Below are positions 1,714 through 38,751 of a stretch of 40,665 nt of DNA, in pieces. The position numbers and the translations under genes were made by a program. The stretch spans positions 1-40,665 of IMG/VR virus record IMGVR_UViG_3300013306_000009. The stretch is one strand, 5' to 3'. Below the pieces are notes generated by a model. The model had not been told where the DNA came from. It did not search any database and worked only from the letters and a program-made list of their open reading frames with translations. Source of the stretch: a virus. The first letter of the stretch is position 1; each line of letters begins with the position of its first letter.

Positions 1714-1892
1714 AGCGCGTGCACGGAGTCTGGCCCCTGCTCATAGCAGGGGCCGTCGTCGTCCTTGGACTCTGGTGGGTGGGGATGACTTTGCTGCCCG
1801 CCCACGCGCCCTGGCTCCTGGTCTACGGTGCCTTCCTCTGGCCTATCGCTGCTGTGTCTGTAACGGCCACACTGCTCGGCCTCCAGGACTGA
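1710..1892 (+). CDS. small two-TM membrane protein
   Basis: This encodes 60 residues from ATG 1710, overlapping the previous stop by four bases. There are two hydrophobic segments, about residues 8-28 (WPLLIAGAVVVLGLWWVGM) and 33-56 (WLLVYGAFLWPIAAVSVTA), separated by a short PAHAP turn. The N-terminus is positively charged (MKRVHG), predicting a hairpin with both ends on the cytoplasmic side. It closes the first rightward operon and is followed by an intrinsic terminator. Holin-like or superinfection-exclusion roles are both possible; its distance from the endolysin makes the holin role less likely. Confidence 0.7.
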   Translation: MKRVHGVWPLLIAGAVVVLGLWWVGMTLLPAHAPWLLVYGAFLWPIAAVSVTATLLGLQD

Positions 1893-1941
1893 TTCGCCGA
1901 ACCGTCATAGAGCCTTTACACTTGCAGGATGTCGCCCAACT

Positions 1942-1977
1942 AAAAGGCCTCGGCGCCCAGCGCGCGAGGCCTTTTTT
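1942..1977 (+). terminator. Rho-independent terminator after the first rightward operon
   Basis: AAAAGGCCTCG (1942-1952), a GC-rich loop, then CGAGGCC followed by six T (1965-1977) form an 11-bp stem ending in a T-run. The A-run on the left also gives some terminator potential in the opposite direction. It lies 50 bp after the membrane-protein stop and before the ParB-like gene. Confidence 0.9.
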
Positions 1978-2014
1978 GGTAGGCGCCACACCTGGTTCGG
2001 AGGTGGAGCACCTA

Positions 2015-9388: not shown

Positions 9389-10428
9389 CAGTAGCTCATG
9401 GCCGGCGGCCCAAAGCTGCGTCGCCGCTTGAACGTCCTGGCCGGCAGTGGCGCGGTGAAGTGTTCGCGCGTCTTGTCGGAAAACCACGCCGCGGCGGTCT
9501 GTTGGTCGCGCACCAGGCGCTGGTTCGATAGCGGCTCGAGCAGGTGTCCGTAGCGCCGCCAGGCGATCGTCAGCGCCGACGCGGTCAGCCACTCACGCTC
9601 GACGGGGCTTTCGTCGTCCTCCAACCGGAGGCCGCTCTGTTCACCGAAGATGCCGCCGGCCTTGCGGCAGTGGTCGTAGGCGCGCTTGAGGCAGCGCAGG
9701 TAGATGAGCTCGCCCTGGATGAAGCTGCGCGTCCAGGTGTTGAGATAGAAGCTGCCGCCGTCGCGCTCGACCTGGCCGCGGACAACGCGCTCGAACGGGT
9801 CAGTCGCATTGCGATCTTCAAACGGAGCCAGGTAGCCAACCTGCAGGATGTCGGTTGAATCCTGCAGCCAGGGAGTGACCACCGACAGGTCGTGGCGCGT
9901 CATGCCTTCGACGGGTTGGCACACCACCTCGACGATGAGCCAGCACTGCTTGAGGCCGTCGTTGATGATGCGGTGCGTCGTTGGCACATCGAACGGGCCC
10001 AGGATCTCGAAGCGCTCGCCGATGCCGTCGGTGCCCATGCCCTCCAGGTCCTCGTACAGGTAGCCCGGCGGGTCGGCCTCCCAATCGTGATAGGTGTAGC
10101 CCTCGAGGAAGTCGTAGGTGTTGCCGGTGTCCAGCGAGAACATCGGGAAGATCCACGGCAGGTCGGGCGTGACGGTGCCCGTGGACGGGTCGTACGTCAT
10201 CACGTAGCGGTTGATGTCGTGCGGATCCGCCGCCGTGGGGCGATACAGCGGACGGTCGACCAGGCTGGTGCTGATCGCCTGGCCGGAGCGAATGGGGTAG
10301 TCCGAGCACATCAGATGGGTCGTGCCGGAGCCCGAGGTCGCGCGGACCTCATAGCTCTCGGGCCCAACGTACGGCCCGCACTCGACGCTGAACATGGAGC
10401 GGTACTGCGCCAGGCTAGGCATGCTCAC
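9388..10428 (-). CDS. tail/connector structural protein
   Basis: This encodes 346 residues from GTG 10428, overlapping the collagen-like gene stop (GTGA); an internal ATG (MPSLAQYRS) is two codons on. The N-terminal and central parts are beta-rich with many Tyr, Asp and Pro; the C-terminal ~130 residues are helical and basic ([37 protein letters not shown]). It is coupled to the large tail gene downstream, so the pair may form the short tail tube, comparable in order to the gp11-gp12 pair of T7-like phages. The family is not recognised. Confidence 0.7.
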
Positions 10429-10973
10429 CCCGCATAGGTCAGATCCTCGATGGAATTCGGAATCGTCTTGGCCTCGAGCGCCGTCACGCGCGCGACCAGC
10501 GCGTTGAACGCCGCGAGTGTCACCGCTGGATCCGCCCAGATGGTTGCGAAGTCAGCCGCGGTCTGCTTGGTCAGGATCTGACTCGTCGCGCCGCCTGTCG
10601 GCACGCCTTGGCCTGGAGGCCCCTGGGAGCCCGCTGGGCCCTGCGCGCCGGTGGCCCCTGTCGCACCAGCGGGTCCGGTCGCACCCGTGCCCCCTGTGGC
10701 GCCCTGAGGGCCCTGCGCGCCCGTCGGACCCGGATCACCCTGGGGCCCCTGCGCGCCGGTAGCGCCGGGCGGGCCCATTGGGCCCTGCGGCCCGGGAGGG
10801 CCCATGGGGCCTGGCGGGCCCTCCCAGGCCGGCGGGTTCTCCGGCGTGATGGGCGTCAGCGGCGGCGGCAGACTGCCAGGCACCTGTAGCGGCGGACCGC
10901 CGACTGGCACGATCGGCTGCAGCGGCGGCGCGGCCGAGGGTGTACCGGGGCTGTACGGCGGTGCCTCAGTCAT
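10425..10973 (-). CDS. collagen-like virion protein
   Basis: This encodes 182 residues. A Pro-rich N-terminus (residues 1-51) leads into 23 uninterrupted Gly-X-Y triplets (about residues 52-120), then [19 protein letters not shown], a sequence commonly found after phage collagen stalks, and finally a short coiled-coil-like segment ([16 protein letters not shown]) able to nucleate a trimer. Such proteins form thin trimeric fibres on capsid or tail. The start overlaps the upstream gene by eight bases. The repetitive GC-rich tract is prone to length changes. Confidence 0.9.
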
Positions 10974-12789: not shown

Positions 12790-13644
12790 TTAGCTGGCTC
12801 CGTTCACGAGGATGCCGAAGTTGTCGCGCATCTCCTGGTGGCCGTAGATAACCTCCGACGCCAGCTTCCACGTGAAGAAGTCGATGTCGTAGAAGATGTG
12901 CGTCTTCGGCGTGCGCTGCTCGACGAGCGCGAGCGCGTCGCGGTGGAAGATCGAGTTGTTCGCCTGGCCGGCGGCCGGCTTGACCAGGTTGGTGGTGACC
13001 TTGAGCGTGAGGCCGTACATCTCGCCCAGCACGCCGTTCTTGACGGGCATGTTGCCCGTGCCGATGTACAGCGCGTTGCTCCAACGATCGAGCGCGAGCT
13101 TGGCGACCTTCTCGGCCGGCGTCATGATGAAAAAGCGGTCGTCTTGCGGCACGTCCGCGTCGTCGAGCAGCTTGACGGCGCCGAGTACGTTGGCGTCGGA
13201 GGCCGCAGTGCCGAGGGTGCCGACCGTCTGCGAGAAACCGGCAAAGTCCGCAGCGAGCTTGCTGTCGATGTCCCTGGCGAGCGCGTAGCCGAGCTTGCGC
13301 TGGTACTCGTTCTGCAGGTCGACGTTCGACTGGACCTTGACGATATCTTCGATGCCGAGCGCCGCGTACGACCAGATGTTGAGCACGATGGTGACGGCGG
13401 TCTCGGCCACGGTCTCGTAAACGATCGCGGTGTTCTCCGCCTTGGCGCGCGCGGCGAGATTGCCGATGCTGGCGACCTTGACGCTCTTGCCGACGCTGGC
13501 GTCGTCCTCGAAGCCTCGGTTCACCGAGTCAGCGATGACCAGATTCGATTCGGTCGCGCGCAGCACCTGCTTGCTCCAGATATCTGGCGAGAAGATGCCG
13601 TCGGCGATGGTTTTGTCGACGAACTCTGAGGCCCCAGTGGCCAT
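12790..13644 (-). CDS. major capsid protein (HK97-fold, P22-like group)
   Basis: This encodes 284 residues starting MATGASEFVDKTIADGIFS, with GGGAG six bases before ATG. Features typical of P22 coat-like/HK97-fold capsid proteins are present: an N-terminal helical segment (FSPDIWSKQVLRATESNLV), a spine-helix-like stretch (QNEYQRKLGYALARDIDSKL), then the A-domain region (DDRFFIMTPAEKVAKLAL; YGLTLKVTTNL) and a strand-rich C-terminus (FFTWKLASEVIYGHQEMRD). It follows the scaffold gene directly, the standard order. A hairpin in the short gap between them may boost or separate its expression. Confidence 0.88.
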   Translation of the reverse strand: MATGASEFVDKTIADGIFSPDIWSKQVLRATESNLVIADSVNRGFEDDASVGKSVKVASIGNLAARAKAENTAIVYETVAETAVTIVLNIWSYAALGIEDIVKVQSNVDLQNEYQRKLGYALARDIDSKLAADFAGFSQTVGTLGTAASDANVLGAVKLLDDADVPQDDRFFIMTPAEKVAKLALDRWSNALYIGTGNMPVKNGVLGEMYGLTLKVTTNLVKPAAGQANNSIFHRDALALVEQRTPKTHIFYDIDFFTWKLASEVIYGHQEMRDNFGILVNGAS

Positions 13645-14775: not shown

Positions 14776-16457
14776 CAGATCGTCGGTCGCTTTACTGTCC
14801 CGAATGTAGCGGGTGCTTGAAATCCCGGCAACGTGTTTTTGAGCTGCGCGTAGGCGTCGGTGGGGTCGATGCCGTACTTCTCCTGCATGCCCTGCAGCAC
14901 CAGGTTCTGGGTGCTCTGCGGCGCCTTGAAGAACTGCACCGAGTTCATCTTGTTCGGCGTCGGGATGGCGTCCATGACCTGGTTCATGCCCTGGGTGTTC
15001 GCGGCGGGGCTGCGGATGTCGTCGATCATCTGCTGCAGGTAGCCCAGGCCGGCACCGCCACCGGAGGCCGGCAGTCCGGCCTGGGCGGCGGCTTGCGCCT
15101 GGCCGGCCTGGCCGAGGCCGTTGACGGTCTGCGTCTGGCCGAAGCCCGAGACCGCGCCGTTGCCGAGGAGCTGGTTCAACTGCCCCATCGCCTGCTGCTG
15201 CTTGAACGGATTGGCCTGCATCTGATTGATCAGGCTGACCAGGCCGGTGCCCTGGTTGTATTGCTGCTGCTGCGCCCCGAGCGTGCTCTGGCCGACGTTG
15301 GGCATGTTCACGCCGGCCTGGCCCTGCTCACCAGGCCTGAGCGGGGTGTAGTACTGGCCGTACATCTGCGCCAGGTCCTGCCCCTGCGTGAAGTACTGGT
15401 TCTGCGCCTGCAGCGTCTCCTGCGGCGTGCCCGAGTCGCCCGGCAGCGTGACGTTATTGGCGGCGGCCCACTCGCGAATGGCCTTGTTCGAGTCACCGAC
15501 CCACTTGTTCATGGCGGCATTCCAGTCCGAGCCGTTGGACATGAAGTACGCCTGCTGGGTGCCCTGGTCCAGGTCGCTGAACTTGCCGCCGTTGAGGTTG
15601 GTGCCGGGCGGCATGACCGCCGCCGGGCGCGCGTACATGCCCGTCACACCGCTCTCCGCCAGCGCTGAGTTCTGCGCCTGGGCGTTGAGGTTGGCGTAGG
15701 TCGAGAGGCCCTGGAGCGTCTGCTGGGGCAGATTCTGCGGCGGCGCCCGCTCGAGCATGATGGCGTTCTGGGCGGTCGTCGTCGGCATCTTCGACAGGTC
15801 GCCGTCCCAGCCCATAGCGCGCGCCTGGGGGATGTTGACACGCATGAGCTGACCGCTCGGCTGCACGTAGCTGATCTGCACGTCACCGTACTGCGTCGTG
15901 TCGTACGTGCCCGGGTCCAGGCGCACAAAGGTGCCAGGCAGCCACTGGCTCTGCGCCGGCTGGGCGTACCACCCGGTGAGCCCAGCCGAGCCCTGGGCGG
16001 TCTGCGCCTGCTGCGCGAGCTCCGACTGCGTCTGCCCCATCGTCAGGCCACTGAAGCCAGGGATGTAGCCCACCGAACCGACCGCCTGACTGGCGGCCAG
16101 CGAGCTCGCGGTCTGCGGCGCGAGCACGCCCGGGCCGAAGTTCTGACCGTACGTGCCGGCCATGGTGTTGCCGAAGTTGAGATTGAACTCGCGGATGAGC
16201 TCCTGGAACTGCGCCATGTTGCCCGAGGCGCTGGCCCCGCCGACCAGGTTCAGGAAGCTCGCGATGTCTGCTGCGCTTGGCGTACCACCACCTCCATTCG
16301 TCGTCTGCGGAGCCCAGCCCATATCGGCGGCACCGTTGGCTTGTTGCTGCGCGGTCGCTGCGCCGGCGCCGCTGGGTTTCTGCCCCGCGGCGTACTGCGC
16401 GCGGCCGTCAGGTGTATCCGCGTAACCCGCTGCGTTGAGCTGGGCCGTGCTGGGCAT
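14775..16457 (-). CDS. probable internal virion/ejection protein (Gln-rich)
   Basis: This encodes 560 residues from ATG 16457 (MPSTAQLNAAGYADTPDGR), overlapping the previous stop (TGATG). It is extremely rich in Gln, Ala, Gly and Asn, with long low-complexity helical segments (ELAQQAQTAQGSAGLTG; INQMQANPFKQQQAMGQL). There is a more ordered central region with repeated Tyr (PGTYDTTQYGDVQISYV; MYARPAAVMPPGTN). With the next two upstream genes it forms a block of large Gln/Ala-rich proteins between portal and scaffold, compatible with ejected internal core proteins of podoviruses. No enzyme domain is visible. Confidence 0.7.
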   Translation of the reverse strand: MPSTAQLNAAGYADTPDGRAQYAAGQKPSGAGAATAQQQANGAADMGWAPQTTNGGGGTPSAADIASFLNLVGGASASGNMAQFQELIREFNLNFGNTMAGTYGQNFGPGVLAPQTASSLAASQAVGSVGYIPGFSGLTMGQTQSELAQQAQTAQGSAGLTGWYAQPAQSQWLPGTFVRLDPGTYDTTQYGDVQISYVQPSGQLMRVNIPQARAMGWDGDLSKMPTTTAQNAIMLERAPPQNLPQQTLQGLSTYANLNAQAQNSALAESGVTGMYARPAAVMPPGTNLNGGKFSDLDQGTQQAYFMSNGSDWNAAMNKWVGDSNKAIREWAAANNVTLPGDSGTPQETLQAQNQYFTQGQDLAQMYGQYYTPLRPGEQGQAGVNMPNVGQSTLGAQQQQYNQGTGLVSLINQMQANPFKQQQAMGQLNQLLGNGAVSGFGQTQTVNGLGQAGQAQAAAQAGLPASGGGAGLGYLQQMIDDIRSPAANTQGMNQVMDAIPTPNKMNSVQFFKAPQSTQNLVLQGMQEKYGIDPTDAYAQLKNTLPGFQAPATFGTVKRPTI

Positions 16458-18211
16458 CAGCGTGTGGCCGGCGCAACGAATGGCGCCAGGGGCACGTACG
16501 GGATGGTCATGCCTGGGCCGGTGTTGAGCATCGGACTGGCGGCCAGATTGGCCGGCAGACCCACCGCCGAGTTGAGCTGCGCGCGATTCCACGGCGTGTC
16601 AGGCAGCCCGCGGGCGTTCAGTGCAGCGGTGCTGTTCTGGCCACCGGGGCTGGCCAGCGCCGCCAGTTGCTGCTGCGCCTGCAGCGCCTGGTTGACGGTG
16701 TCGGTCGTCTGCTGCCCCTGCGCCGTGCCCGTGTTGGGGGCCACAATGGCCGTGCTGACCGCGTTGGGGTTGACCGCAGCGCCACCGCCTGTGGTTCCTC
16801 CGGTGGTCGCTGCAGCCGCCCCTGCGCCGCCTGGGGCACCGGTATCGCCAGGCGACCAGTCACGTCCGGTCATCTGCTTGAAGGCGTCCATCAGCGGCTT
16901 GACCATGGTGTACATCTGCTGACTGGCGACCTGGTTCTGGCTGATGGCCGGGTTGGCCGCCTGGACCATCGCCGCCGCCGAGTCGTACACCCCCTGACCA
17001 CCGCCCAGGTCGGTCAGGAACGGCTTGACGCCAGCCGCGAACGCCTCGCCGGCGCCCGACGGCCAATTCAGGATGCTCTTGTTCTGCGCCGCTCCCAGCG
17101 CCTGGCCGAACATGTTCGCGCCGGCGTTGACGCGCGTGTTCAAGATGTCGCCGCCGGTGCGCGCGTTGGTGCTCGTCGTCGTCTGCTGGTTGGTCGTCAT
17201 CGACGACAGCGCGTTCAGCGCGGCGGTGTCCTTCTGTGCCTGCGCGGTGGCGACAGCTTGCGCTTCGGCCGCCTGGTTGTGGCGCGTCGTCTCCTGGCCC
17301 TCGACGCCGCGCAGACGGTTGCTCTCGACCTGCGCCGCAGCGGTGGCCTGTGCCGCCTCGTTGGTTTGCTGCTGCTGGAGCTCACTCAGCGCGATGCGGC
17401 GGTCGTTCTGCTTGTTGACGTAGTCGTTCTGCAGCTCGAGCGCCTTTTGCTTCTGCTCCTCGGTTGCCTGGCCCGCCTGGGCGACCTGCACACGCAGGTC
17501 GTCGACCTTAGCCTGGTGCTCGGCCGCCTCGCGCTGAGTGACCGCGTTCATCGCCGCGATCTCGTTGGACCGCATCGAATTGGCGTTGTTGTTGCTGGCG
17601 ACCTGCAGCGCGTTGTCGATCTGCTGCTGCGTCAGGCTGTTCTTGACGCCCTGATCCTTGATGTCGGCGACTTCCTTGTCGGTCAGCGCCAGGCCGGTCT
17701 TGGCCTTGTTGGCGTCGCGCTCCTGGTTCTCCTGCTGGATCTTCTCCAGGTTCGCGCGCGCGGTGTCCGCCGCGGCCTGCGCGGTGGTCAGCGCGGCCTT
17801 GTTCTGGTCGGAAGTCGGCGACTGCGGCTTGACCGTCTGCTCGACGCCGTAGATGTCCCAGTCGACCTGGTCCATCGGCATCGAGGCGGGGTCCGTGCCC
17901 GCCTTGGGCGTGATGGTGATGGTGCGGACTTCGCCCTCGGGACCGGTGGCAGTGACGGTGTACTGGTTGCCCTGGACCGTCGCGCCGGTCGAGTCACGCT
18001 TGCGCACGGGCGGACTGGAGATCTGCCAGCCCGTGACGTTCGCCAGCCCCAGCGCGGCCTTCAGGAAGGCTTCGGTGTTGTAGCGAGACTTGTCGCCACG
18101 GTCCGACGGATTGGTCTGCACGGCCGTGCCATTGCCCTGCGTCGGTGTCAGTCCGCTGGCAGCCGGCTCGCCGACCGTGCCGTTTTCATTCAGGACCGGG
18201 TTCTCGGCCAT
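16457..18211 (-). CDS. probable internal virion protein with long coiled coils
   Basis: This encodes 584 residues. Residues ~45-130 form a beta-rich domain (VRKRDSTGATVQGNQYTVT; GEVRTITITPKAG). Residues ~140-350 are an almost continuous Ala/Gln/Glu coiled-coil region (ARANLEKIQQENQERDANK; ALSELQQQQTNEAAQATAA). The C-terminal ~230 residues are Gly/Thr-rich and end with a LNARGLPDTPWNRAQLNSAV motif echoed at the start of the next protein. The length and helix content could suit a tape-measure, but no tail-tube genes are seen, so an internal/ejection protein is preferred. Confidence 0.7.
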   Translation of the reverse strand: MAENPVLNENGTVGEPAASGLTPTQGNGTAVQTNPSDRGDKSRYNTEAFLKAALGLANVTGWQISSPPVRKRDSTGATVQGNQYTVTATGPEGEVRTITITPKAGTDPASMPMDQVDWDIYGVEQTVKPQSPTSDQNKAALTTAQAAADTARANLEKIQQENQERDANKAKTGLALTDKEVADIKDQGVKNSLTQQQIDNALQVASNNNANSMRSNEIAAMNAVTQREAAEHQAKVDDLRVQVAQAGQATEEQKQKALELQNDYVNKQNDRRIALSELQQQQTNEAAQATAAAQVESNRLRGVEGQETTRHNQAAEAQAVATAQAQKDTAALNALSSMTTNQQTTTSTNARTGGDILNTRVNAGANMFGQALGAAQNKSILNWPSGAGEAFAAGVKPFLTDLGGGQGVYDSAAAMVQAANPAISQNQVASQQMYTMVKPLMDAFKQMTGRDWSPGDTGAPGGAGAAAATTGGTTGGGAAVNPNAVSTAIVAPNTGTAQGQQTTDTVNQALQAQQQLAALASPGGQNSTAALNARGLPDTPWNRAQLNSAVGLPANLAASPMLNTGPGMTIPYVPLAPFVAPATR

Positions 18212-21200
18212 CAGCGACTCCCTGCGGGCTGCAGCTTACCCGCGACGCGGGTGCTGGCCTGATCCATGCGACGGTCAATCTCGGCGTCTGGGGTGATGCT
18301 GGCCCAGATGTTGGCCGCGCGGTCGTCGTAGCGCGACATGATGCGCGTGAGTGCGCGCGCCTGCTCGTTGGGCGTCATTGTCTTCCACTCGGACGAGTTG
18401 ACGAGCTCACTGGCGGCCTGGTCGATGAGCTTGCCACGCTCGACGGCGACCTTGCGCTGCTCGTCCTCACTGAGGGTGATCACGCGGCCACTGCGCGTGA
18501 TCTCCTTCGGCGCGCGCGTCGGGTCTGGGATCGAGTACCCGTTGCGCTCGAGCTCGTTGATGGCCGTTTGGACGCTGCTGACCGGCCGTGTCTGCATGCC
18601 GATGAGCTCGCCGAGGCCGGCCGATCGGCGCTGCTCGGGCTGGCCGCTGGTCATCACGGGCGTGGGCGGCAGCATGCTCTCCACGCCGGGGATCTTGGCC
18701 TGCTGGCGCTCGAGCACCGCGCGCAGTCCCTCGTTGCTCGGATCGCGCAGGATGGGGTCCCACGCCGCGGTGGCCTGATTCAGCGCCGCGCTGGCCGGCA
18801 AGTAGCGATCGGTGTAGCTGGCGCCGAGCTGGCCGAGCGCGCCCATGGCATTGCCCTCGCCGACCTGGTTGAGCACCTTGATCATGTCCGCGGCGTAGAA
18901 CTGGTTGCTCAGTGCCTTGAGCGAGGCGTTGCCCACCGCGTTGATGTAGTTCGGGTTGGGCTTGTTGCCCTCGCGCTGCACGCCCTCGACGATCGCCGCC
19001 GGCAGCGCGATCGGCGCGGCCCACGGGCCCCAGCTCGAGTAGTCGTACCACTGCCCGTTCAACTTGATGCCGTTGGGGTGCTCTTTGTCGTCGGGGCCGC
19101 GGATATTGCCGTTGGCGATGTTGCTGAGGATCGCCGAGGAGATCACGCTCTGCGTCAGCGCGTCACCCATGGCACGGCGAGCCGCCTCGGGGTCGCCCCT
19201 GGCGAAGTGGAAGCCCGCGCGCGTGAGCGCCTCGAGCTCGCCGATGCCTGGCGTGCGCCGCAGGCCGATGTTCCAGATGCGGTCCGGCACGCCCGAGAAC
19301 GGCACCAGCGCGTCGACAAGGAGGCCGAGCGCCTGCTTGCCGTACGCCTGGGCGCGCGGCCCGAGGCCGGGGTCCGTCGGGGTTGCTGCGAGCAGGTCGC
19401 CCTTGAAGTGGCTGATCGCGCTGCCGATGCCCGTACCACTGTTCTCGCCGAAGACCGACATGGCGCCGCTGCGCTGCCCCGCAGCGTCGATGCGCGCCTG
19501 ATTCGAGGAGAGCACCTGACTCGCAACCATGCCTGGGTTCTCTCGCAACAGACGACTGCCTTCCTGTCCGGCACCCATGGCCCACCCCAGCGTGCGGAAG
19601 AAGTCGTCCGTGGCGCTCAGGATGCGGAAGAACGGCAGGAACTTGCTGGTATCGCCGGCCGTCATGGTGGTCTGGCCCGTGGCCATCGCATTCGCGAAGT
19701 TGCGGATCGCGTCGGGCACCGCGTGGCCGGCCATCTTGATGCCTGCCATCGCATCATCCTCGCGGCCGGAGAGCGCGGCGACCACGGGCTGGCGCGCGAG
19801 CTCGGCGAGCTGGGTCGCGATGTTGCTCACCGACGTCTTTGCGCCGCTCAGCAGATTCTGCTTGGTGTAGGCGCTGACCATCTGGCCAGGCGTCATCGAC
19901 GGCCGTGGCGTGCCCGGGAACGGGCGCGCAATCGGCGTTCGCTGGGCGGCCAGGTCGGCGTAGCGCGGGACGTTGCGCCCGGCGAGCGCGAGCGCGGTGC
20001 CTGGTGCCGCGGAGCCGAGCACGCCGCCGGCAATGTCGCGGCCAAAGCGGCCCCAGGGGTCGGACTTGTCCTGTTCGGACATCGTGCCTTCCTGGGACGC
20101 GACGCCGGCCGCGGCGCCGCCGAGGCGCAGAGCGGCCCGCGGGTCGATCGAGCCGGCTTCGGAGCCCTCGCCGGTTAGGAAGTTGCCGAGTCGGGAGCCG
20201 ACGTTTGCGGCGCTTGGAAGCTCTGGGCTGGGCCCTGGGGCCCCTGCGGCGAGGTCACGGACGGCGGCAGAGGTGCCTGCTGCTGCGGCGTCGCCGCCTT
20301 CGCCCCGGACGGTGGCGGCGAGAGGATGCGCCAGGTCCCAGAAAGCTTGGGCCCTTTGGGATCGGTTGATGACGTCTGCGTAATCTTCACCGTTCGGCCT
20401 CGATTCCCAGTCGTTGGTGAGGGTCGTCGTGTCAGCCCGTACGCGGGTGCGGGTGAGTGACTCGTCGCCTGGCAGAGATTCTAACGCAGCATCGACGGCC
20501 TTATGGAACTCAGGATTCGGGGCGCCGACCCACTGCCCGGCGGTCTTCGGCTGGCCTGGCACATTCGGCTGGCGGTTGAACTCGCCATCGTGATTGATGA
20601 TCCAGGCGCCGTTGTCGGTCGGCGTGATGCTGACCTTGTCACCGAGCTGCTGCTGGAGGTGAGCGACCTCATCGTCCGTGATCTGGCGCCCCATGTTGAC
20701 CACGACGCCGTTGGAGTCGCGCGCCGGCGCGCCCTCGAACACACGCGCCCAGGAGATCTCGGGCAGCTTCTGCAGCCAGGCCTTGGCCGCGGCGTAGGCC
20801 GAGACGGTCTGTGCCGCGGCGCGGCTGACCATACCCGCGTTTTCGGGGATGTTCTCCGTCATCACCTCGCTGGGCTTCTTCGGATTGCGGATGGCATTGC
20901 CCGCCTCGTCGTACAGCGTGCGCGAGCCCTTCTCGGCCGGCAGCGCGGGCGCGCCCTCCTGGCCAAAGAGGCCGAAAACGCGACGGAGCTGGTCGCCGAC
21001 GCCGCTGGCCTCGAGGTCACCGCCGACACGGCCAGCGCGCTCGGCCAGGCCGGTGCCGTAGTGGTAGCCGGCCTCGCCGAGCGCGGTGCCTTCCGTGCCG
21101 GCCTTGAAGGCGGACCAGATCGCCGCCTGGACCTGGTCGGGGCGCCAGCCGAGCTCCTTGGCCACGTTCTCGATCGCGCGCTGTGCGAACTCGTACTGGC

Positions 21201-24200
21201 CCTGCGGGCCGAGCGTGGGCACGTCCTTGAGGTACTTCAGCGCGCGCATCATCCAGATGTCGATGGTCGTGCCTGTCTGGCCGTCCTCTTTACCCATCGA
21301 CTTCCAGACGTCGTTGTCGATGTGGTACATGAGGTTGCGGTAGAAGTTGTTGGTCTTGCGGCCGTCCCAGTTTTTGCCGTCCACCAGGAGCTCGGTCGCC
21401 TTCTTGTCGAGCTGGCCCTTGCCGACGTCGATCGGCACGCCTTCCAGGAACTGGTGCCAGGCCGCCAGCGCCATCTGGGTGTTCGCTGAGACCGTGTTGC
21501 CGGGACTGTAGATGGCGAAGAGCTGCGCAAGCTTCTCCGCCTTGACCTTGTCGCCGCCCGCGGCGTCCATGATCGCCTGGCTGGCGTTGGTGTACCAGTC
21601 CTTCTGGCTCTCGCCTTGCTTGGCGAGCTCGAGCAGCCAGTTGTGCATGCGCGCCATGTTCGAATCCGTCTGAGCCGTCGGCGGCGCACCCTTCTGGATA
21701 GCTGCCTTGTCGCCGAAGCTGCGCAGGAACTGACGCGCGGCCAGGACCTGCTCGCTGGTGGGGCGCGCGGTGAACGCGGCGTTCGCCGCGTCGGCGATGG
21801 GCCCTGAGAACTTGAAGACGCGGCCGGCCGTCTCGCGCGCCTTATTGACCGCACCAGCGATCTCCTGCGCCGAGGCGCCCTTGCGCAGCGCCTGCTGCTC
21901 AAAGGCAGCGATGACGGGGTCCTGGCGGCGCAGCGCGCCGGCCACGAACGCGCCGCCGGCCGCGCGGTAGAGGCGATCCTGGGGGCTCTGGTTCTCGTCG
22001 CCCGTCGAGGCCCCCGCCGCGGCGCCCAGCGGGGCGTAACCCGCCTGGGTGCCAGCGAGCGTGCGGCTCTTGTCGAGGCCAGACTGGAACAGGACGCGCA
22101 CCTGGTGCTGGATGGGCTGGCCCGTATCCGGGTTGGGCATTGGGCGGACGTTTCCGCCCTGGTGGGTGATGCCGTCGAGGCCGGCGTCGGCGAGCACCTT
22201 GTTGACCGCCGCCTTACTGCCGGCTTCACCGCGGATCAGGTCGTACACCGCTGAGCCATTGACTTCAGGACGCGACCAACTCGCGACCTCGGCGGCCGTG
22301 TCGGGGTCTTGCAATGCATTCGGGCCCCAGAGCCGTTTCGCGATTGCCTCGGCCTGCGCCTGCGGAAGCGGCGCGTCCATGTCGAGCAGGTTCAGGTCAT
22401 TCGGCACGCTGAGCGGACGCACCACTGCCCCGGGTGCGCGGTCCGCGGCTTCAAGCTGCTGCCGCTGACGAGCGAGGATGTCCTGCGCCTGCTGCAGCTT
22501 GGCTTGCAACTCTGCCCGCTGAGCGGGACGTGTTTCCGTCTCCAGCGCGCGCTGATACGTCGCGATGCTCGGCTCCAGGCGAGCGATGTTGCGCTGGAGC
22601 GCGTCGTAGGTCTCCTGCGTCGGCGCCCCCGCGCGCGTAGCCGCGGACTGCGCGTAGCCCTCCTCCTCGACACGCGCCGGCGCGCTTGCAGGCACCACGT
22701 CCCATCTGGGCAGATCGCTGCGTCGCAGGGACGTGTACTGCGCCAGCAGCTTGTCCTCGTCCGCGCGCATCGCCGCTCGCGCAGCGGCCTGCGTCGGGAA
22801 GATCTTGCTGCCCTGCGCCTCGTCGATGCTGCCGTCGCGCTTGAAGAAGCGTGCGCGCCAGCCTGTTTGCGCGGGATTGACGATGCCGCCGGCGATGCGC
22901 GGGTCGTCGGTCGTGTAGAAGCCTGGCCCGTACAGCGCACTCTCGTCCGCGCGCCCCAGATCCGCACGCTCGAAATCGCCGGCGGTGCCCGAGTAGACGC
23001 GCGTCATGTTGTCCTTGATCGACGTGGCGACCTGGCGCAGCTTGTCGACGTCGAGCGCGCCTGATTCGTCGGTCAGGAAGCGGCCGATGGGCCCCTGGCT
23101 GAGCTCGCGCATGATGTCGTCGACACTCGAGCGCGCCCAGCGGCCGATCGCGCTGGTGGCCACCGTCGTGGCCTGGCGCGCATTCTGGATTTGACCACCC
23201 GCCCAGCGGAATGGGGGAAGCTGCTGCGTTGGGCCGAACGCGGCACGATCGGCGGCCCTCGAGGCCGCACCGGCCGCCCCGCCGGCGAAGCGCTCCTCCA
23301 TGCCCGTCGGAATCAGGAAGTTGGCGGCCTGGCCAATGATGTCGGCCACCGGCGTCGGGCCCAGGAATGGCAGTGTCCAGGTCTGCTCGGCCGGCACGAC
23401 GTTGCTCGACTTCAGGAAGGCTGCCAGCGGTCCGGAGATGTCGGGGGCTTGCGCGCCCGGCGGCATCGGCGCGGCGCCGGCGGCCTCGGTGAGGCCAGAC
23501 GGCAACTGGCGCCCGGTGAGCTCCTGCGCCAGGCTGAGGCCGGCGCCGATCGGGTTCTGCTCGCTCGCCTGACGCTGCGCCTCGGTGTTCGCCGCCTCGA
23601 GGCCCGCGCCGAGACGGCCAAGGTTGTCGGGCAGGCCAAGCACACTGTCGCGGATCTCACTCGGTGTCGAACCCGTCAGGCTGCGGCTGACGAAGTCGGT
23701 GGCCGGCCCAGCCACGGAGCCCACCGCCTGGCCGACGGGTGACTCGAGCGCCGGCCTGGCGTAGTTGTTGATCGCGTCAAAGCCCGGCCGCGCTGTCTGT
23801 ACGCCCTGGTCAAACGAGCTGCTCAACTGCTGGCGCGCCGCGTCCAGGTTGGCCTGCATCTGCTGACGCCACTGCTCGTTGGCCTTGGCCTGGTCGTCGA
23901 GCTGCTTCTGCAGCGCCTGCATGCTGGCGTTCAACTGGTCGTTGGCCTGCTGCAGCGCGGTCTTGCCCTGGTTGACCAGCTCACCCGCCTGGTTGGCCAC
24001 ATCGGTGCTGGTCCTGGTCGCTGCGTCCAGCGCACTCTGGCCAGCGCTGGTGACGGCATTGCCCGCAGTGCTCAACGTCTGGTTGACCGTGCCGCCCAGA
24101 TTGTTGGCGATACTCGAGACGATGCCCAGGTACTCGGGCTCCGCCGCGGTGAAGTAGCCGCCCTGCTTCAGGCCGTGCACGAACGTCGGCAGGTCGGGCG

Positions 24201-25503
24201 CGTTGACGGCGCCCTTGTAGCGATTCTTGATCAGGTCGATCCAGGCATTTACCGAGTCGAGCGGCGTCTTGTACTGGGCGAAGTCCGCGTTGGTGGCCAC
24301 GCCGCCGTACTCGCCTTCGTGCGTGGCCATCGACGCCGAGCCGGCGTTGCCGCTGCCCTTGACCCCGAAGAGCTCGTTGCCGCCGGCCTTGCCGTAGTTC
24401 GACTCGCTGGCCATCATCGCCACGATCCAACTCGGATCGAGGCCGAGCTGCTTGGCCGCGTACGCGGCGTACGGCGCCGCAGAGCGCGCGAAGGCCTGCG
24501 GCGAGCTCGCGTCGATCGAGCCCAGGTCCGTCGAGCTGGTGGCCGGAGTTGTGGCCGGGGTGGCCGGATTCGCCGTTCCGGCCAGCGCACCTGACGGTTG
24601 CTTGGCGCCGGTCTCATACGGCCGCGGGTCGATGAGCTGGTTGAGCGGGTCGCCGTTGCTGGCGTTCTTGCGCACCTCGTAGTGCAGGTGCGGGCTGCCC
24701 TCGGTGCCGCTCTCGCCCATCTGCGCGATCGGCGTGCCGCGTTGCACCTGGTCGCCGATCTTCACGTTGGCGCTCTTGAGGTGCATGTACGCATGCGTCA
24801 GCCCGTCGGCGTCCTGGACGTAGACGATCAGGCCGCCGGCGCCGCCTGGGTCACGGAACACGTTGGTGACCGTGCCCGGCGTGAACGCGTCCACCTCGGT
24901 GCCGATGCCGCCGCCGTTGCTGGGCACCAGGTCGACGCCGCGGTGCGGTGTGCCTGTGCGGTAGTCGCCGGTGTAGGTCGCACCGAAGTCGAACTGCGTC
25001 TTCCAGTTCTTGCCCAGGTCGGGGCCGGCGCTCGCCGACGGCGTGACGCCCACGTCGGTCGGAGTGGCCGGCTCCTCGGTGTGCGGTAACGCGGTCGTCC
25101 CGGTGCCCTGCTGCTGCTGGGGCTGGGTGACGGACCTGAACCAGTCATCGAACTGCTTCAGCGCACCGCTCGGATCGGGGATCTGCGACGGCGACAACTG
25201 AGGGGAGCTCGTACCTGTCAGTTCAGGGGCAGGCGCTGCCGCCGGCGCAGGCTGAGACTGTACCGGCTGCGGCTCGGGGACCAGCCGCTGGTTGATCTTG
25301 GCCTGCTGCTGCGCGAACCAGGTGTCAAAGTCGTTGAGTGCCTGCTGGCCCTGGTCAGTGACCTGCTGACCGTCCGAGGCCGCGGCCTGCACCGCGGGCT
25401 GCGCCGCCGCCGCGATCTGCCGCTTCTGCTGCTCGAACCAGCTATCGAAGTCGTTCAGCGCCGCCTGGCCGGCATCGTCCTGGAGCAGGAAGCCGCCAGG
25501 CAT
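18211..25503 (-). CDS. giant polyvalent ejection-type protein: M23 peptidase, GH73 glucosaminidase, ADP-ribosyltransferase-like domain
   Basis: This encodes 2430 residues, 18% of the genome. In order: three FD-x-WF repeats at ~15-30, 55-70 and 114-128; an M23 metallopeptidase at ~165-300 (HRGVD, His187/Asp191; HLH, His272/His274); a GH73-like glucosaminidase at ~335-470 (ESNYG with Glu367, NELFGVKG); helical linkers; an ADP-ribosyltransferase-like domain at ~833-1140 (YSGT, LYGPGFYTTDD, NLLDMDAPL, VRVLFQSG) resembling ART domains of phage polyvalent proteins; a conserved-looking helical domain at ~1250-1480; then ~900 more residues, mostly helical. The first two domains would open peptidoglycan during DNA entry; the ART-like domain could act on host targets. 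It starts at ATG 25503, straight after the previous stop. Domain roles are from family resemblance; ejection is inferred. Confidence 0.88.
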   Translation of the reverse strand: MPGGFLLQDDAGQAALNDFDSWFEQQKRQIAAAAQPAVQAAASDGQQVTDQGQQALNDFDTWFAQQQAKINQRLVPEPQPVQSQPAPAAAPAPELTGTSSPQLSPSQIPDPSGALKQFDDWFRSVTQPQQQQGTGTTALPHTEEPATPTDVGVTPSASAGPDLGKNWKTQFDFGATYTGDYRTGTPHRGVDLVPSNGGGIGTEVDAFTPGTVTNVFRDPGGAGGLIVYVQDADGLTHAYMHLKSANVKIGDQVQRGTPIAQMGESGTEGSPHLHYEVRKNASNGDPLNQLIDPRPYETGAKQPSGALAGTANPATPATTPATSSTDLGSIDASSPQAFARSAAPYAAYAAKQLGLDPSWIVAMMASESNYGKAGGNELFGVKGSGNAGSASMATHEGEYGGVATNADFAQYKTPLDSVNAWIDLIKNRYKGAVNAPDLPTFVHGLKQGGYFTAAEPEYLGIVSSIANNLGGTVNQTLSTAGNAVTSAGQSALDAATRTSTDVANQAGELVNQGKTALQQANDQLNASMQALQKQLDDQAKANEQWRQQMQANLDAARQQLSSSFDQGVQTARPGFDAINNYARPALESPVGQAVGSVAGPATDFVSRSLTGSTPSEIRDSVLGLPDNLGRLGAGLEAANTEAQRQASEQNPIGAGLSLAQELTGRQLPSGLTEAAGAAPMPPGAQAPDISGPLAAFLKSSNVVPAEQTWTLPFLGPTPVADIIGQAANFLIPTGMEERFAGGAAGAASRAADRAAFGPTQQLPPFRWAGGQIQNARQATTVATSAIGRWARSSVDDIMRELSQGPIGRFLTDESGALDVDKLRQVATSIKDNMTRVYSGTAGDFERADLGRADESALYGPGFYTTDDPRIAGGIVNPAQTGWRARFFKRDGSIDEAQGSKIFPTQAAARAAMRADEDKLLAQYTSLRRSDLPRWDVVPASAPARVEEEGYAQSAATRAGAPTQETYDALQRNIARLEPSIATYQRALETETRPAQRAELQAKLQQAQDILARQRQQLEAADRAPGAVVRPLSVPNDLNLLDMDAPLPQAQAEAIAKRLWGPNALQDPDTAAEVASWSRPEVNGSAVYDLIRGEAGSKAAVNKVLADAGLDGITHQGGNVRPMPNPDTGQPIQHQVRVLFQSGLDKSRTLAGTQAGYAPLGAAAGASTGDENQSPQDRLYRAAGGAFVAGALRRQDPVIAAFEQQALRKGASAQEIAGAVNKARETAGRVFKFSGPIADAANAAFTARPTSEQVLAARQFLRSFGDKAAIQKGAPPTAQTDSNMARMHNWLLELAKQGESQKDWYTNASQAIMDAAGGDKVKAEKLAQLFAIYSPGNTVSANTQMALAAWHQFLEGVPIDVGKGQLDKKATELLVDGKNWDGRKTNNFYRNLMYHIDNDVWKSMGKEDGQTGTTIDIWMMRALKYLKDVPTLGPQGQYEFAQRAIENVAKELGWRPDQVQAAIWSAFKAGTEGTALGEAGYHYGTGLAERAGRVGGDLEASGVGDQLRRVFGLFGQEGAPALPAEKGSRTLYDEAGNAIRNPKKPSEVMTENIPENAGMVSRAAAQTVSAYAAAKAWLQKLPEISWARVFEGAPARDSNGVVVNMGRQITDDEVAHLQQQLGDKVSITPTDNGAWIINHDGEFNRQPNVPGQPKTAGQWVGAPNPEFHKAVDAALESLPGDESLTRTRVRADTTTLTNDWESRPNGEDYADVINRSQRAQAFWDLAHPLAATVRGEGGDAAAAGTSAAVRDLAAGAPGPSPELPSAANVGSRLGNFLTGEGSEAGSIDPRAALRLGGAAAGVASQEGTMSEQDKSDPWGRFGRDIAGGVLGSAAPGTALALAGRNVPRYADLAAQRTPIARPFPGTPRPSMTPGQMVSAYTKQNLLSGAKTSVSNIATQLAELARQPVVAALSGREDDAMAGIKMAGHAVPDAIRNFANAMATGQTTMTAGDTSKFLPFFRILSATDDFFRTLGWAMGAGQEGSRLLRENPGMVASQVLSSNQARIDAAGQRSGAMSVFGENSGTGIGSAISHFKGDLLAATPTDPGLGPRAQAYGKQALGLLVDALVPFSGVPDRIWNIGLRRTPGIGELEALTRAGFHFARGDPEAARRAMGDALTQSVISSAILSNIANGNIRGPDDKEHPNGIKLNGQWYDYSSWGPWAAPIALPAAIVEGVQREGNKPNPNYINAVGNASLKALSNQFYAADMIKVLNQVGEGNAMGALGQLGASYTDRYLPASAALNQATAAWDPILRDPSNEGLRAVLERQQAKIPGVESMLPPTPVMTSGQPEQRRSAGLGELIGMQTRPVSSVQTAINELERNGYSIPDPTRAPKEITRSGRVITLSEDEQRKVAVERGKLIDQAASELVNSSEWKTMTPNEQARALTRIMSRYDDRAANIWASITPDAEIDRRMDQASTRVAGKLQPAGSR

Positions 25504-26047: not shown

Positions 26048-28012
26048 TCAGTAGCGGATGCTCTGCTGACCCGGCGGCAGTCCACCCGGTCCTATGCCGC
26101 CACCACCTGCGGCCGCGGCGCCGGCCATGACCTGGGGCCCTGGCGGTGGCTGAACGCCCGCACCGTTCGGGGCCGCTGCCAGAGCACCCATGTCCGGCAC
26201 AGCCGGCGACCCCTCGAACACGCCCGGAGCGGGCGCGCCTTGCGGCACCGCCTGTGTCTGATCGGCCAGCACCCCATTCGCTGCCAGATCGGATGCCTGC
26301 TGCGCGAGCTGCAGGATGTCGCCGCGGCCAGCGAACATGAACACCTGGCTGTCGAGCCACTTCTGGTACTGCGGCGTCTGACGGATGCGGTCGCGCTCCT
26401 TCGAGCGGCGGATCTCGTCAGGGTTATCCCCCAGGTACTCGATCGCCTCGTCGGCACCCCATGTGCCCGCGGCCAGGCGCTCGTGCGCGTAGCGCGCGCG
26501 CATCATGTCGTCGGTCGGGAGCTGCTGCTGCACCTCCCAGCGGATGCGCACAGGCCGATCGAAGTCCTTCGGGCCCAGCCCGATGTAGCCACCTGATCCG
26601 ATCTCGGCTTCACTATCGCCCGCCGAGTATCCGACGTAGATCTTCTCTTTGACCTTGTAGCGCGCCAGGTCCCAGAGTTTCTCGGTCTGACCCTTGAGCA
26701 GCGTCTCGAGGCCGCGGCTCACCGGCGCAACGCGCGTCCGCGAGTAGCTCAGCACCTGGCTGATGGCGAAGCCGGCGCCCTCCATGCCGCCCAGCGTGGT
26801 TACCTTCGGGCTTTCGAGCTGAGCGATCGCGCCATCGATCAGACTCATGTGCTTTTCCAGCGTCGCCGCGTCGGGGTATTCGATGCGCGCAAGCTGGCGG
26901 CCAGGCCCGTTATTGATGATCTCGCCGGGGAGGGGCCCAGGATCGCGCTCACGCGGCTTGCCGTCGTTGCCGATGACTGGCGCTGCGCTCGAATCGCCAA
27001 AGCTCTGGAGTGGACTCAGCAGGTCACGCGCAACGTATTGGGCGTGCATTGCGCGAAGGTACTGGCGGTACTTCACCAGCCAGAGCTTGGTCTGGCTGAT
27101 GCCCCAGCCTACCTTGCGGCTGCGCCAGTAGCTCATCCACAAGCCTGGGCCGAAGTCGTACGGCACGCCGAACGGGTAGCCGTGCTCGAACTGCTTGACG
27201 ATCGCGCTGGTCGGGTTGCCGTTGTAGTTGGTGCCGGCCACGGTCCACGTGCACCACTTCTCATCCCAGTGCTCGTGCATCGTCACGCTGTACGGCAGCA
27301 CGCGCGGGTTGTTTTCAGCCTGGGGGCGGCCAAGCGCCTCGGGCACAATGTTGCCGACCGCGTCCAGGTCGAGGCGATAGCGGCGCAGCGTCGAGCGCAG
27401 CGGGCGCTCGGTGATCTCGAGCACCTCGCACAGACGCCCGCCGCTGAAGACGGGATAGACGCAGCGCGGGTCGACGTACATCCACGAAAACGGCGGCCCT
27501 GCGGCCTTCTTCGCATCCTCAGTGTCGCGCTCGTAGGCGGTGTAGCTCTGGCTGTAGCTGGTATAGCTCTGGCTATAGCGCAAGTCCCAAGCGTCGCGTG
27601 TGAACAGCAGCTTGCTCCAGGCGCCGCCGTCATTCAGCGCAGCGTCGGTGCACTGCGCCATGGTGTCCTGGCCTGGCTCGCGTGTGCCGCACTCCCAGAG
27701 CGTCTCCTCGGTCCAGTGCTCGCGCAGGCTGGCGTTGGTCTGCGCCGTGTCACCCTCGCCTGCCTTGAGCGTGAGTTTCGGGCGCTCCATGGTCATAATC
27801 GCCGTCTGCTGGAACGCCTCCTCGGTGACGTCCGGGTCGCGTGGGTCGACGTTGACCAGCGTGTAGCGCTGGTCCGCGCCGGCCATCGCGGGCACGCGCA
27901 TCTCGCGCTGCTTGCGCGCGTCGTCGAGCTGGCGATCGTCGTCGAGGTACAGGTCGCCGAGCTCACTGGCGAGTGCGCGCAGGTACTCCGCACTCGGTGG
28001 CTTGTCAGCCAT
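26048..28012 (-). CDS. portal protein
   Basis: This encodes 654 residues. Portal-like features are an N-terminal helical region, the segment VDPRCVYPVF typical of portal wing strands ('..vdp..vyp....'), a long central clip/stem region with PGEIINNGPGRQLARIEYP, then helices around SPKVTTLGGMEGAGFAISQ and a disordered Pro/Gly-rich C-terminus (from ~residue 600). The size is close to podoviral and SPP1-like portals. A local duplication YSQSYT-SYSQSYT occurs near residue 150. It lies between terminase and capsid genes as expected. The start ATG overlaps the previous stop (TAATG). Confidence 0.85.
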   Translation of the reverse strand: MADKPPSAEYLRALASELGDLYLDDDRQLDDARKQREMRVPAMAGADQRYTLVNVDPRDPDVTEEAFQQTAIMTMERPKLTLKAGEGDTAQTNASLREHWTEETLWECGTREPGQDTMAQCTDAALNDGGAWSKLLFTRDAWDLRYSQSYTSYSQSYTAYERDTEDAKKAAGPPFSWMYVDPRCVYPVFSGGRLCEVLEITERPLRSTLRRYRLDLDAVGNIVPEALGRPQAENNPRVLPYSVTMHEHWDEKWCTWTVAGTNYNGNPTSAIVKQFEHGYPFGVPYDFGPGLWMSYWRSRKVGWGISQTKLWLVKYRQYLRAMHAQYVARDLLSPLQSFGDSSAAPVIGNDGKPRERDPGPLPGEIINNGPGRQLARIEYPDAATLEKHMSLIDGAIAQLESPKVTTLGGMEGAGFAISQVLSYSRTRVAPVSRGLETLLKGQTEKLWDLARYKVKEKIYVGYSAGDSEAEIGSGGYIGLGPKDFDRPVRIRWEVQQQLPTDDMMRARYAHERLAAGTWGADEAIEYLGDNPDEIRRSKERDRIRQTPQYQKWLDSQVFMFAGRGDILQLAQQASDLAANGVLADQTQAVPQGAPAPGVFEGSPAVPDMGALAAAPNGAGVQPPPGPQVMAGAAAAGGGGIGPGGLPPGQQSIRY

Positions 28013-30893: not shown

Positions 30894-32153
30894 TCAGCGC
30901 GAGAATGAGTAGCTCGAGCGCCGCGGCGCGACGTCCACGGCGGCGCCGAGATTCGCCAGGCACAACGCGATGACGGTGTCGTCGTGCATGCCGGACGGCG
31001 CCGCGTAGCGGATCATGCCCGTCGCCGTCTTCGTGCTTTCGAACGCGAGGAGCTCTGCCTGCTGCACCTGGTCGTCGAGCAGCGTGAGCTCGCCACGTTC
31101 GATGTTCAGCGCGAGCCTTTCGATCGCGGCAGCTTTGCTGGCGTTGTCGTTATGCCAGCCGTACACCGGCAGCGCCGCGCGCGGCTTGCCGATCAGGCGC
31201 GCGTAGCCACGCTGCAGGCGCTCGACCAGCGGTCCGCCCATGCTGTTACGCTCGGCGACGATCTGCGTCGGGTGGTACACGCCCACCCACTCATGCAGGC
31301 GCTCCGTCTGCACTTCGAAGTCCAGGTCGGTGAAGCGATCCAGCGCGACCTGCTCCATCGTCGTTGCATCAAGCACGCTGATGACGGTGAAGTCGTTCGA
31401 TCTGCCCCAATCGCAACCAAACGTGTACACGTGCCCGCGCTCCGGTGGCCGCGGCTTCAACCTGGACACCGCGCGCACGCCACGGAACACGCCCGCGCCC
31501 TCAAGGCTCAGGAACTGCGCGAGGTATTCCTGGGCAAACGTCCGCTCGGGCAGCTCGTGGCGTGCTGCCTCGATCTCTGCCGGCGAGATGAAGGGATTCA
31601 CCGACGTCGGCATCTGCCACGAGCGCCAGTCCGTCTCGAGTGGATCCTGGCCGCGCGTGAACAGCGTGTAGAAATCGTTCAGTCCGCGCGGCGTGGACAT
31701 GAACCAGCCGTCACCGCGGAAGTCGGTCAGCGTCGGGCGGATCGCCTGACCCCACACATCAGCCAGGTGCGGGATCATCGCAGCCTCATCGACGACCGCG
31801 AGCGCGTAGCGTCGACCGCGCGCAGGATCGCCCGTGTCTGTACTCCAGCACTCCAGTACGCCGCCGCCATACAGCTCGAGGCGGTGCTCCTGCTCACTCT
31901 TATCGACGATGACCTCGGCGACGACCGCCTTCAGCTCGCGCCAGAACTCCTCGAGCAGCTTGTACGTCGGCGCGAAGTACGCCGCCGGCCGCTGGGTAAG
32001 CGCGCACTTCGTGAGCAGGCGCTGCGCAAGCTTGCTCTTGCCGGCGCGACGCCCGAGCGCGACCGCGTTGAAGCGCGCGGCCTCGGCAATGATCTGCGCC
32101 TGGGCCGGATGTGGGGCGGCAAGCCTAACTGTGCGCTCGACCGTTGAGCTCAT
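30894..32153 (-). CDS. terL: terminase large subunit
   Basis: This encodes 419 residues. The ATPase has Walker A GRRAGKS (34-40) and Walker B ALAVVDEAAM (Asp122, Glu123), with a coupling-motif-like STPRG at 153-157. The C-terminal RNase H-fold nuclease has CDWGRSNDFTV (Asp248, Asp254) and MHDDTVIAL (Asp391, Asp392). It packages DNA into the prohead by cutting concatemers and translocating with ATP. Length is typical. The start ATG overlaps the small-subunit gene by 29 bases. The packaging mode (cos or pac) is not determined. Confidence 0.93.
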   Translation of the reverse strand: MSSTVERTVRLAAPHPAQAQIIAEAARFNAVALGRRAGKSKLAQRLLTKCALTQRPAAYFAPTYKLLEEFWRELKAVVAEVIVDKSEQEHRLELYGGGVLECWSTDTGDPARGRRYALAVVDEAAMIPHLADVWGQAIRPTLTDFRGDGWFMSTPRGLNDFYTLFTRGQDPLETDWRSWQMPTSVNPFISPAEIEAARHELPERTFAQEYLAQFLSLEGAGVFRGVRAVSRLKPRPPERGHVYTFGCDWGRSNDFTVISVLDATTMEQVALDRFTDLDFEVQTERLHEWVGVYHPTQIVAERNSMGGPLVERLQRGYARLIGKPRAALPVYGWHNDNASKAAAIERLALNIERGELTLLDDQVQQAELLAFESTKTATGMIRYAAPSGMHDDTVIALCLANLGAAVDVAPRRSSYSFSR

Positions 32154-38550: not shown

Positions 38551-38751
38551 GTGAGCGAAGCGTCAGAGCCGACCCGCCTACCCGTCAAGCCCATCCCCTG
38601 GCGCGTCTACGAAATCCTGGCCCGCGTCAAGCTGCGTCAGGTCCAGGCCGACCTGGACGCCGGCATCGGTGACCGTGCTCAGCTCGAGGCCGAGCGCGAC
38701 CTGCTCGAGCGGCTGCTGGCTACGCCGCCAGCAGCTCGAAGTGCGGCCTGA
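38551..38751 (+). CDS. small coiled-coil protein, convergent with integrase
   Basis: This encodes 66 residues from GTG 38551. The sequence WRVYEILARVKLRQVQADL then RAQLEAERDLLERLLA predicts helices with coiled-coil character. It is the only rightward gene in the right 36 kb, and its last 32 bases overlap the integrase 3' end on the other strand. Such an arrangement could allow antisense effects on integrase mRNA. Codon bias is like the neighbours. It might be a recombination directionality factor by position, but nothing in the sequence shows this. Confidence 0.55.
   Translation: MSEASEPTRLPVKPIPWRVYEILARVKLRQVQADLDAGIGDRAQLEAERDLLERLLATPPAARSAA

What the first reader, a model, noticed from the sequence alone, without database searches (positions are those of the whole stretch)
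18211..25503. 2430-residue virion-type protein combining two wall hydrolases with an ADP-ribosyltransferase-like domain
Seen: M23 motif (HRGVD...HLH), GH73-like E-S-N-Y-G/NELFGVKG, then YSGT...LYGPGFYTTDD...NLLDMDAPL...VRVLFQSG at ~833-1140. Known: ART-like domains occur in 'polyvalent proteins' of phages and conjugative elements that are thought to be injected with DNA. Inference: one polypeptide both opens the wall and delivers a host-modifying enzyme during ejection. The central helical domain (~1250-1480) and the ~900-residue C-terminus are unexplained and could be new domains.
Basis: partly seen in the sequence, partly recalled or inferred. Interest (0 to 1): 0.85.

Follow-up and report, generated by a model that had tools for sequence, protein, structure and literature searches.

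The report
Phage ejection protein with swappable payload
A soil phage of an uncultured group makes a 2430-residue protein whose front end cuts the bacterial wall, whose tail end resembles the phage T7-type proteins that carry DNA into the cell, and whose middle is an exchangeable block holding an ADP-ribosyltransferase-like fold (with one key catalytic residue changed) and a second uncharacterised domain, so it is probably a delivery vehicle for whatever the middle block does.

Summary
The ORF is real: 2430 aa, MINUS strand, 25503->18211. M23 (6e-21) and GH73 (7e-14) are confirmed with catalytic motifs intact. The ART-like segment (820-1163) has the ART-PolyVal fold (AlphaFold2 plus Foldseek, E 9e-6 to an ART-PolyVal-named protein; two relatives hit the Pfam family directly), but the strand-1 catalytic His, kept in 24 of 25 aligned sequences, is Ser838 here and in a 97%-identical sister; the core stays under purifying selection. 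The 'new' helical domain is DUF7178 (Pfam), which travels with a companion segment (1486-1771). The 'unexplained' C-terminus (1845-2429) is homologous to internal virion protein D of T7-like phages (profile-profile E 2.5e-31) and overlaps LPD38. Dozens of relatives keep the C-terminus and gene order while hydrolases and middle change; a relative with a 94%-identical capsid protein lacks residues 837-1771 as one block. Best reading: an ejection protein with an optional payload, i.e. a 'polyvalent protein' on a gp16-type chassis. A new variant of a known kind. Virion location is inferred from homology; catalysis by the ART is unproven and doubtful. Lead only: DUF7178 may be DNA-glycosylase-like (HhH-GPD).

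The parts
18211..25503 (-). whole gene, 2430 aa, ATG start
25024..25503 (-). N-terminal leader (res 1-160): conserved start MPGxxLLxDD, three FDxWF repeats, low-complexity Ala/Gln/Pro
   Evidence: alignment A1 consensus
24604..24999 (-). M23 endopeptidase (res 169-300), HxxxD and HxH intact
24076..24495 (-). GH73 glucosaminidase (res 337-476), ESNYG Glu intact
23059..24054 (-). linker/coil and family-specific region (res 484-815), shared at 44% with the relative L003/L114 that lacks the payload
22015..23046 (-). ART-PolyVal-like domain (res 820-1163); Ser838 in place of strand-1 His, Tyr863, Asp1110; long variable insert 881-1040
21049..21696 (-). DUF7178 (res 1270-1485), invariant K1383 and D1415
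20191..21048 (-). companion segment (res 1486-1771) found next to DUF7178 in other giant phage proteins
20005..20145 (-). Gly/Ala-rich joint (res 1787-1833) at the payload/C-terminus border in many relatives
18217..19971 (-). internal virion protein D / LPD38-type C-terminal domain (res 1845-2429)
26048..28012 (-). conserved 654-aa neighbour in portal-like position (identity not established)
16457..18211 (-). 584-aa Ala/Gln-rich neighbour, candidate second ejection protein (inference)
12790..13644 (-). major capsid protein (phrog_267)
30894..32153 (-). terminase large subunit

Best explanation
This is the large ejection protein of a probably temperate (serine integrase) phage with a 40-kb genome. 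Its C-terminal ~585 residues are the same kind of domain as the C-terminal half of internal virion protein D (the positional counterpart of T7 gp16), which would place it inside the head and send it through the tail into the cell envelope with the DNA. Its N-terminus carries two peptidoglycan hydrolases (M23 peptidase plus GH73 glucosaminidase) where T7 gp16 has one transglycosylase, to open the wall for the DNA channel. Between them is an optional payload slot; here it holds an ART-PolyVal-fold domain with a Ser-Tyr-Asp instead of a His-Tyr-Asp signature, and a DUF7178 plus companion cassette, presumably delivered to the cytoplasm early in infection. Shown here: domains, homology, fold, payload presence/absence and swaps, constraint on the ART core. 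Inferred: packaging, ejection, cytoplasmic delivery, and any catalytic activity of the payload.
For: M23/GH73 with intact motifs. C-terminus: phrog_6651 'internal virion protein' in 18 of 30 relatives, best 4e-31; LPD38 in 3, best 9e-20; tblastn of relatives to annotated internal virion protein (D) of Roseobacter, Synechococcus and Desulfovibrio T7-like phages; hhalign 99.9%, E 2.5e-31 over 477 columns. ART fold; relatives hit PF18760. Payload slot: relative L003/L114 (capsid protein of the same contig 94% identical) aligns up to residue 836 and again from 1772 with only 35 residues between; L116/L127 versus L168/L154/L055 share the N-terminal block fully and the C-terminus at ~55% but nothing in the middle; L033/L123 (1301 aa) is nearly payload-free, SLT-C39-C-terminus. 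Gene order TerL - portal-position gene - giant - capsid conserved. ART core dN/dS about 0.05.
Against: The window's own C-terminus gives no direct Pfam or PHROG hit; the link runs through relatives and profiles. T7 gp16 itself is not matched. No PDB fold match for the C-terminal model. The strand-1 His of the ART is missing. No proteomics, no cultured relative, host unknown.
Confidence: 0.78

Rival explanations
1. The ART-like segment is a catalytically dead or repurposed scaffold (binding NAD or a protein partner, or just filling the slot), so no host protein is ADP-ribosylated by this phage. This is compatible with the ejection-protein reading and concerns only the payload.
For: Strand-1 His is Ser in window and sister, His in 24 of 25 aligned sequences; the strand-5 acid cannot be assigned firmly by sequence.
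Against: The core around Ser838 is strongly conserved between window and sister (1 replacement, 6 synonymous changes over 51 codons) with a fast-evolving insert, a pattern of retained function.
Confidence: 0.5
2. The protein is a tail tape-measure or minor tail protein rather than an ejected internal protein.
For: PHROG hits to tape measures, but only through the M23 domain.
Against: C-terminus is homologous to internal virion protein D, not to tape measures; gene lies in the terminase-to-capsid block.
Confidence: 0.08
3. DUF7178 is an HhH-GPD-type DNA-glycosylase-like domain injected with the DNA (a claim about the payload, compatible with the main reading).
For: Predicted from motifs before the structure search (note): S-P...N, G-x-K-T after a helix-loop, 18 residues (in stand-alone forms) to a D followed five later by R, as in E. 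coli EndoIII K120-D138-R143; K1383, D1415 and R1420 invariant in 33 of 33; helix boundaries agree; an 8-oxoguanine DNA glycosylase (AGOG, 7ou3) is rank 2 of the PDB search at E 0.31, prob 0.28.
Against: The Foldseek hit is not significant and superposes poorly (rmsd 13.5); hhalign to Nth/MutY fails; no Pfam HhH-GPD hit.
Confidence: 0.25
4. The giant ORF is a chimeric assembly artefact.
For: It comes from a metagenome contig.
Against: A 97%-identical copy of residues 1-1093 in another contig and dozens of relatives with the same layout.
Confidence: 0.02

Closest known systems
T7-like internal virion protein D (gp16 type), e.g. S-TIP28, Roseobacter phage CRP-403, Desulfovibrio phage ProddE
   Same: homologous C-terminal half; wall hydrolase at the N-terminus in T7 gp16 (PMC8954989)
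   Different: twice the length; M23+GH73 in place of SLT; a 935-residue payload block between; gene lies upstream of the capsid gene; T7 gp16 itself not detectably similar
Polyvalent proteins with ART-PolyVal and LPD domains (Iyer et al. 2017, PMC5512222)
   Same: large multidomain phage protein, ART-PolyVal fold, LPD38 in relatives, wall hydrolases, exchangeable domains
   Different: no zincin MPTase, helicase or primase seen; ART lacks the His; C-terminus tied here to internal virion protein D
Bcep22-like giant DarB-type protein, JC1 gp69 (PMC9144972)
   Same: N-terminal lytic-transglycosylase-like domain, payload in the middle, LPD38 near the C-terminus
   Different: payload there is a DarB-like antirestriction helicase/methylase region; here ART fold and DUF7178
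DUF7178 (PF23802)
   Same: clear member (E 4e-12; all nine aligned members hit)
   Different: elsewhere stand-alone 174-196 aa or inside ~740-aa phage proteins as well as giants; here inside an ejection-type protein

Membership tests
ART-PolyVal (Tox-ART-HYD2 clade) | ART fold | tested here: met
   AlphaFold2 core strands high confidence; Foldseek to ART-PolyVal proteins E 9e-6, 1.6e-5, and PolyVal ART 2.5e-3
ART-PolyVal (Tox-ART-HYD2 clade) | profile hit of the window's own sequence to PF18760 | tested here: not met
   only relatives reach it
ART-PolyVal (Tox-ART-HYD2 clade) | His in strand 1 | tested here: not met
   Ser838; His in 24/25 aligned; PMC5512222 defines the clade by H-Y-D
ART-PolyVal (Tox-ART-HYD2 clade) | Tyr in strand 2 | tested here: met
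   Tyr863, 25/25
ART-PolyVal (Tox-ART-HYD2 clade) | Asp in strand 5 | tested here: inconclusive
   Asp1110 (24/25 Asp) precedes the fifth core strand in the model; assigned by strand order only, no coordinates available
T7 gp16 / internal virion protein D | homologous C-terminal domain | tested here: met
   (E 2.5e-31); not to T7 gp16 itself
T7 gp16 / internal virion protein D | N-terminal peptidoglycan hydrolase | tested here: met
   M23 and GH73
T7 gp16 / internal virion protein D | gene cluster with two other ejection proteins | tested here: inconclusive
   conserved 584- and 605-aa neighbours, identity unproven
T7 gp16 / internal virion protein D | inside the virion and ejected | not testable with these tools
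   needs virion proteomics or cryo-EM
polyvalent proteins | several effector domains plus an LPD in one large phage protein | tested here: met
   LPD38 scored only in relatives
M23 peptidase | HxxxD and HxH zinc motifs | tested here: met
GH73 | profile match and catalytic Glu motif | tested here: met
HhH-GPD DNA glycosylase (for DUF7178) | profile or significant fold match | tested here: not met
   only motif spacing and K/D conservation

The most novel reading that the evidence does not exclude
The phage clade uses a gp16-type ejection protein as a generic injector with a payload slot, and the DUF7178 cassette in this member is a base-excision (HhH-GPD-like) enzyme delivered together with the DNA, acting on host or incoming DNA at the start of infection, next to an ART-fold module with altered chemistry.
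Probability: 0.2. Interest if true: 0.75.

Novelty: new variant of a known kind. Interest (0 to 1): 0.58.

Why it matters
Polyvalent proteins were proposed to be injected mainly on domain-content grounds. Here a sequence link ties the C-terminus of such proteins to a domain of annotated ejection proteins, and one phage clade shows the same chassis with different, or almost no, payload. That gives defined payload borders, so unknown injected enzymes can be listed and tested one by one.

Tried and rejected
Direct Pfam/PHROG/PDB sequence searches for the ART segment and C-terminus of the window alone (nothing for these parts). PDB Foldseek of both models: no significant hit. PDB profile searches for ART, DUF7178, C-terminus and the portal-position gene: nothing meaningful. 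HHalign of DUF7178 against EndoIII/MutY: nothing. Host search in species-representative genomes with the giant and with the capsid protein: nothing. First mixed alignment misplaced the stand-alone DUF7178 rows and was replaced. Query began with a few residues mistyped by me outside the domain; it found nothing. Tape-measure reading rejected (M23-only hits). ART frequency among relatives (21 of 32 complete) is not used as a rate, because many loci were fetched by ART similarity.

Full report
What is there. The gene occupies 18211-25503 on the minus strand and encodes 2430 residues. The record is a 40.7-kb virus contig that is the whole window. Minus-strand neighbours include a serine integrase, replication genes, TerL, a 654-aa gene in portal position, the giant, two Ala/Gln-rich genes, a probable scaffold and the capsid protein. 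No similar giant exists in the named-phage collection beyond its hydrolase domains, and neither the giant nor the capsid protein finds a prophage in the species-representative genomes: the clade is uncultured as far as these collections show, and its host is unknown.

Relatives. Scanning viral contigs with the capsid protein gave 80 loci of the same clade, and an ART alignment gave 37 loci. Reading the gene upstream of the capsid gene gave 52 distinct entries (fragments and a few repeats included) carrying the C-terminal domain, 32 of them complete ORFs (one of these is a split 798-aa form). Gene order is conserved.

Domain by domain. (1) M23 at 169-300 and GH73 at 337-476 are unambiguous and have their catalytic motifs. 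In relatives the hydrolases are exchanged for SLT and C39-like domains and their order changes. (2) The ART-like segment 820-1163 aligns with its relatives around the motif TRMYHGT ... GPGYYLTsDPR ... GxNVRxxDvP ... aGfDGIxYxGG ... VIFPxSLDKxRNAiSG. Relatives hit ART-PolyVal and DUF3990, and the AlphaFold2 model of the window's segment matches ART-PolyVal proteins by Foldseek. Iyer et al. (PMC5512222) define this clade by H-Y-D. The window has Ser838 (codon TCG) where 24 of 25 aligned sequences have His; the 97%-identical sister contig has the same codon. Tyr863 is universal; Asp1110 is probably the strand-5 Asp. Between window and sister the first core stretch has dN/dS about 0.05 while the insert 881-1040 has 0.50. 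So the domain is maintained, but its chemistry cannot be assumed. (3) 1270-1485 is DUF7178, with W1303, Y1304, S1333, N1341, G1381, K1383, F1387, D1415, R1420, Q1459 and W1463 invariant or nearly so in 33 non-redundant members. The next ~285 residues recur beside DUF7178 in other giant phage proteins, so both form one cassette. (4) 1845-2429 is the constant part. The window's own sequence has no library hit, but 18 of 30 relatives hit phrog_6651 'internal virion protein' and 3 hit LPD38; relatives find annotated internal virion proteins of T7-like phages; profile-profile comparison gives E 2.5e-31 over 477 columns. T7 gp16 itself is too far.

The payload slot. Against L003/L114, from a phage whose capsid protein is 94% identical to the window's, homology runs to residue 836, stops inside the first ART strand, and resumes at 1772 with 35 residues between in the relative: ART, DUF7178 and companion are absent as one block. 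Other pairs share N-terminal block and C-terminus but no middle (L116/L127 vs L168/L154/L055). L033/L123 has almost no middle, i.e. nearly the layout of T7 gp16. A Gly/Ala-rich joint of about 45 residues marks the border after the ART and/or before the C-terminus in many members. One member carries a GNAT-like domain in the middle.

How it most likely works. By analogy with gp16 (PMC8954989: N-terminal hydrolase in the periplasm, C-terminal part reaching membrane and cytoplasm), the protein is packaged in the head, unfolds through the portal, its hydrolases open the wall, the C-terminal domain helps conduct the DNA, and the middle reaches the cytoplasm. Packaging, ejection and delivery are inferred from homology, not shown. 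The ART may be inactive, altered or repurposed.

DUF7178. From motifs I predicted, before the structure search, an HhH-GPD DNA-glycosylase-like domain. The PDB search then put an 8-oxoguanine DNA glycosylase at rank 2, but at E 0.31 with poor superposition, and profile comparison gave nothing. This stays a lead, not a result.

Novelty. Polyvalent proteins with ART, wall hydrolases and LPD38 are known, and the Bcep22-like giant of JC1 has the same plan (PMC9144972). In the open library I found no paper holding both 'internal virion protein' and 'polyvalent protein'; that does not prove absence elsewhere. New here: the tie of such C-termini to internal virion protein D, the presence/absence and swap evidence for a payload slot, the Ser-Tyr-Asp ART variant, and DUF7178 as payload.

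Noticed in passing
window 25110-25503 (minus), res 1-130: N-terminus MPGxxLLxDD is conserved across most giants although the rest of the leader varies; the window also has three LxxFDxWF repeats (res 16, 56, 115). Possible docking or packaging signal.
   Followed up: partly
window 20005-20145 (minus) and many relatives: Gly/Ala-rich ~45-residue joint (LGGAAAG..A..TPEDAsPxER..R...GA.AG) at payload borders; overlaps the most hydrophobic stretch of the protein; could be a membrane helix or a recombination joint.
   Followed up: partly
L171 (contig of 56584 b), L161, L152: Other giant phage proteins (up to a 4182-aa open frame) carry DUF7178 or ART in different contexts.
   Followed up: no
L011:247-3225: Giant gene apparently split: ART end in one place, C-terminal domain as a separate 798-aa ORF.
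   Followed up: no
window 10425-10973 (minus): 182-aa protein with collagen-like/tail-fibre matches.
   Followed up: no
window 38720-40468 (minus): Large serine integrase: phage is probably temperate, yet no prophage of the clade was found in species-representative genomes.
   Followed up: partly
window 1775-3196 (plus): 473-aa protein strongly matching phrog_5931 of unknown function.
   Followed up: no
window 22384-22863 (minus), ART insert res 881-1040: Insert evolves about ten times faster (dN/dS 0.50) than the ART core between two near-identical phages; may reflect target choice or escape from host immunity.
   Followed up: partly
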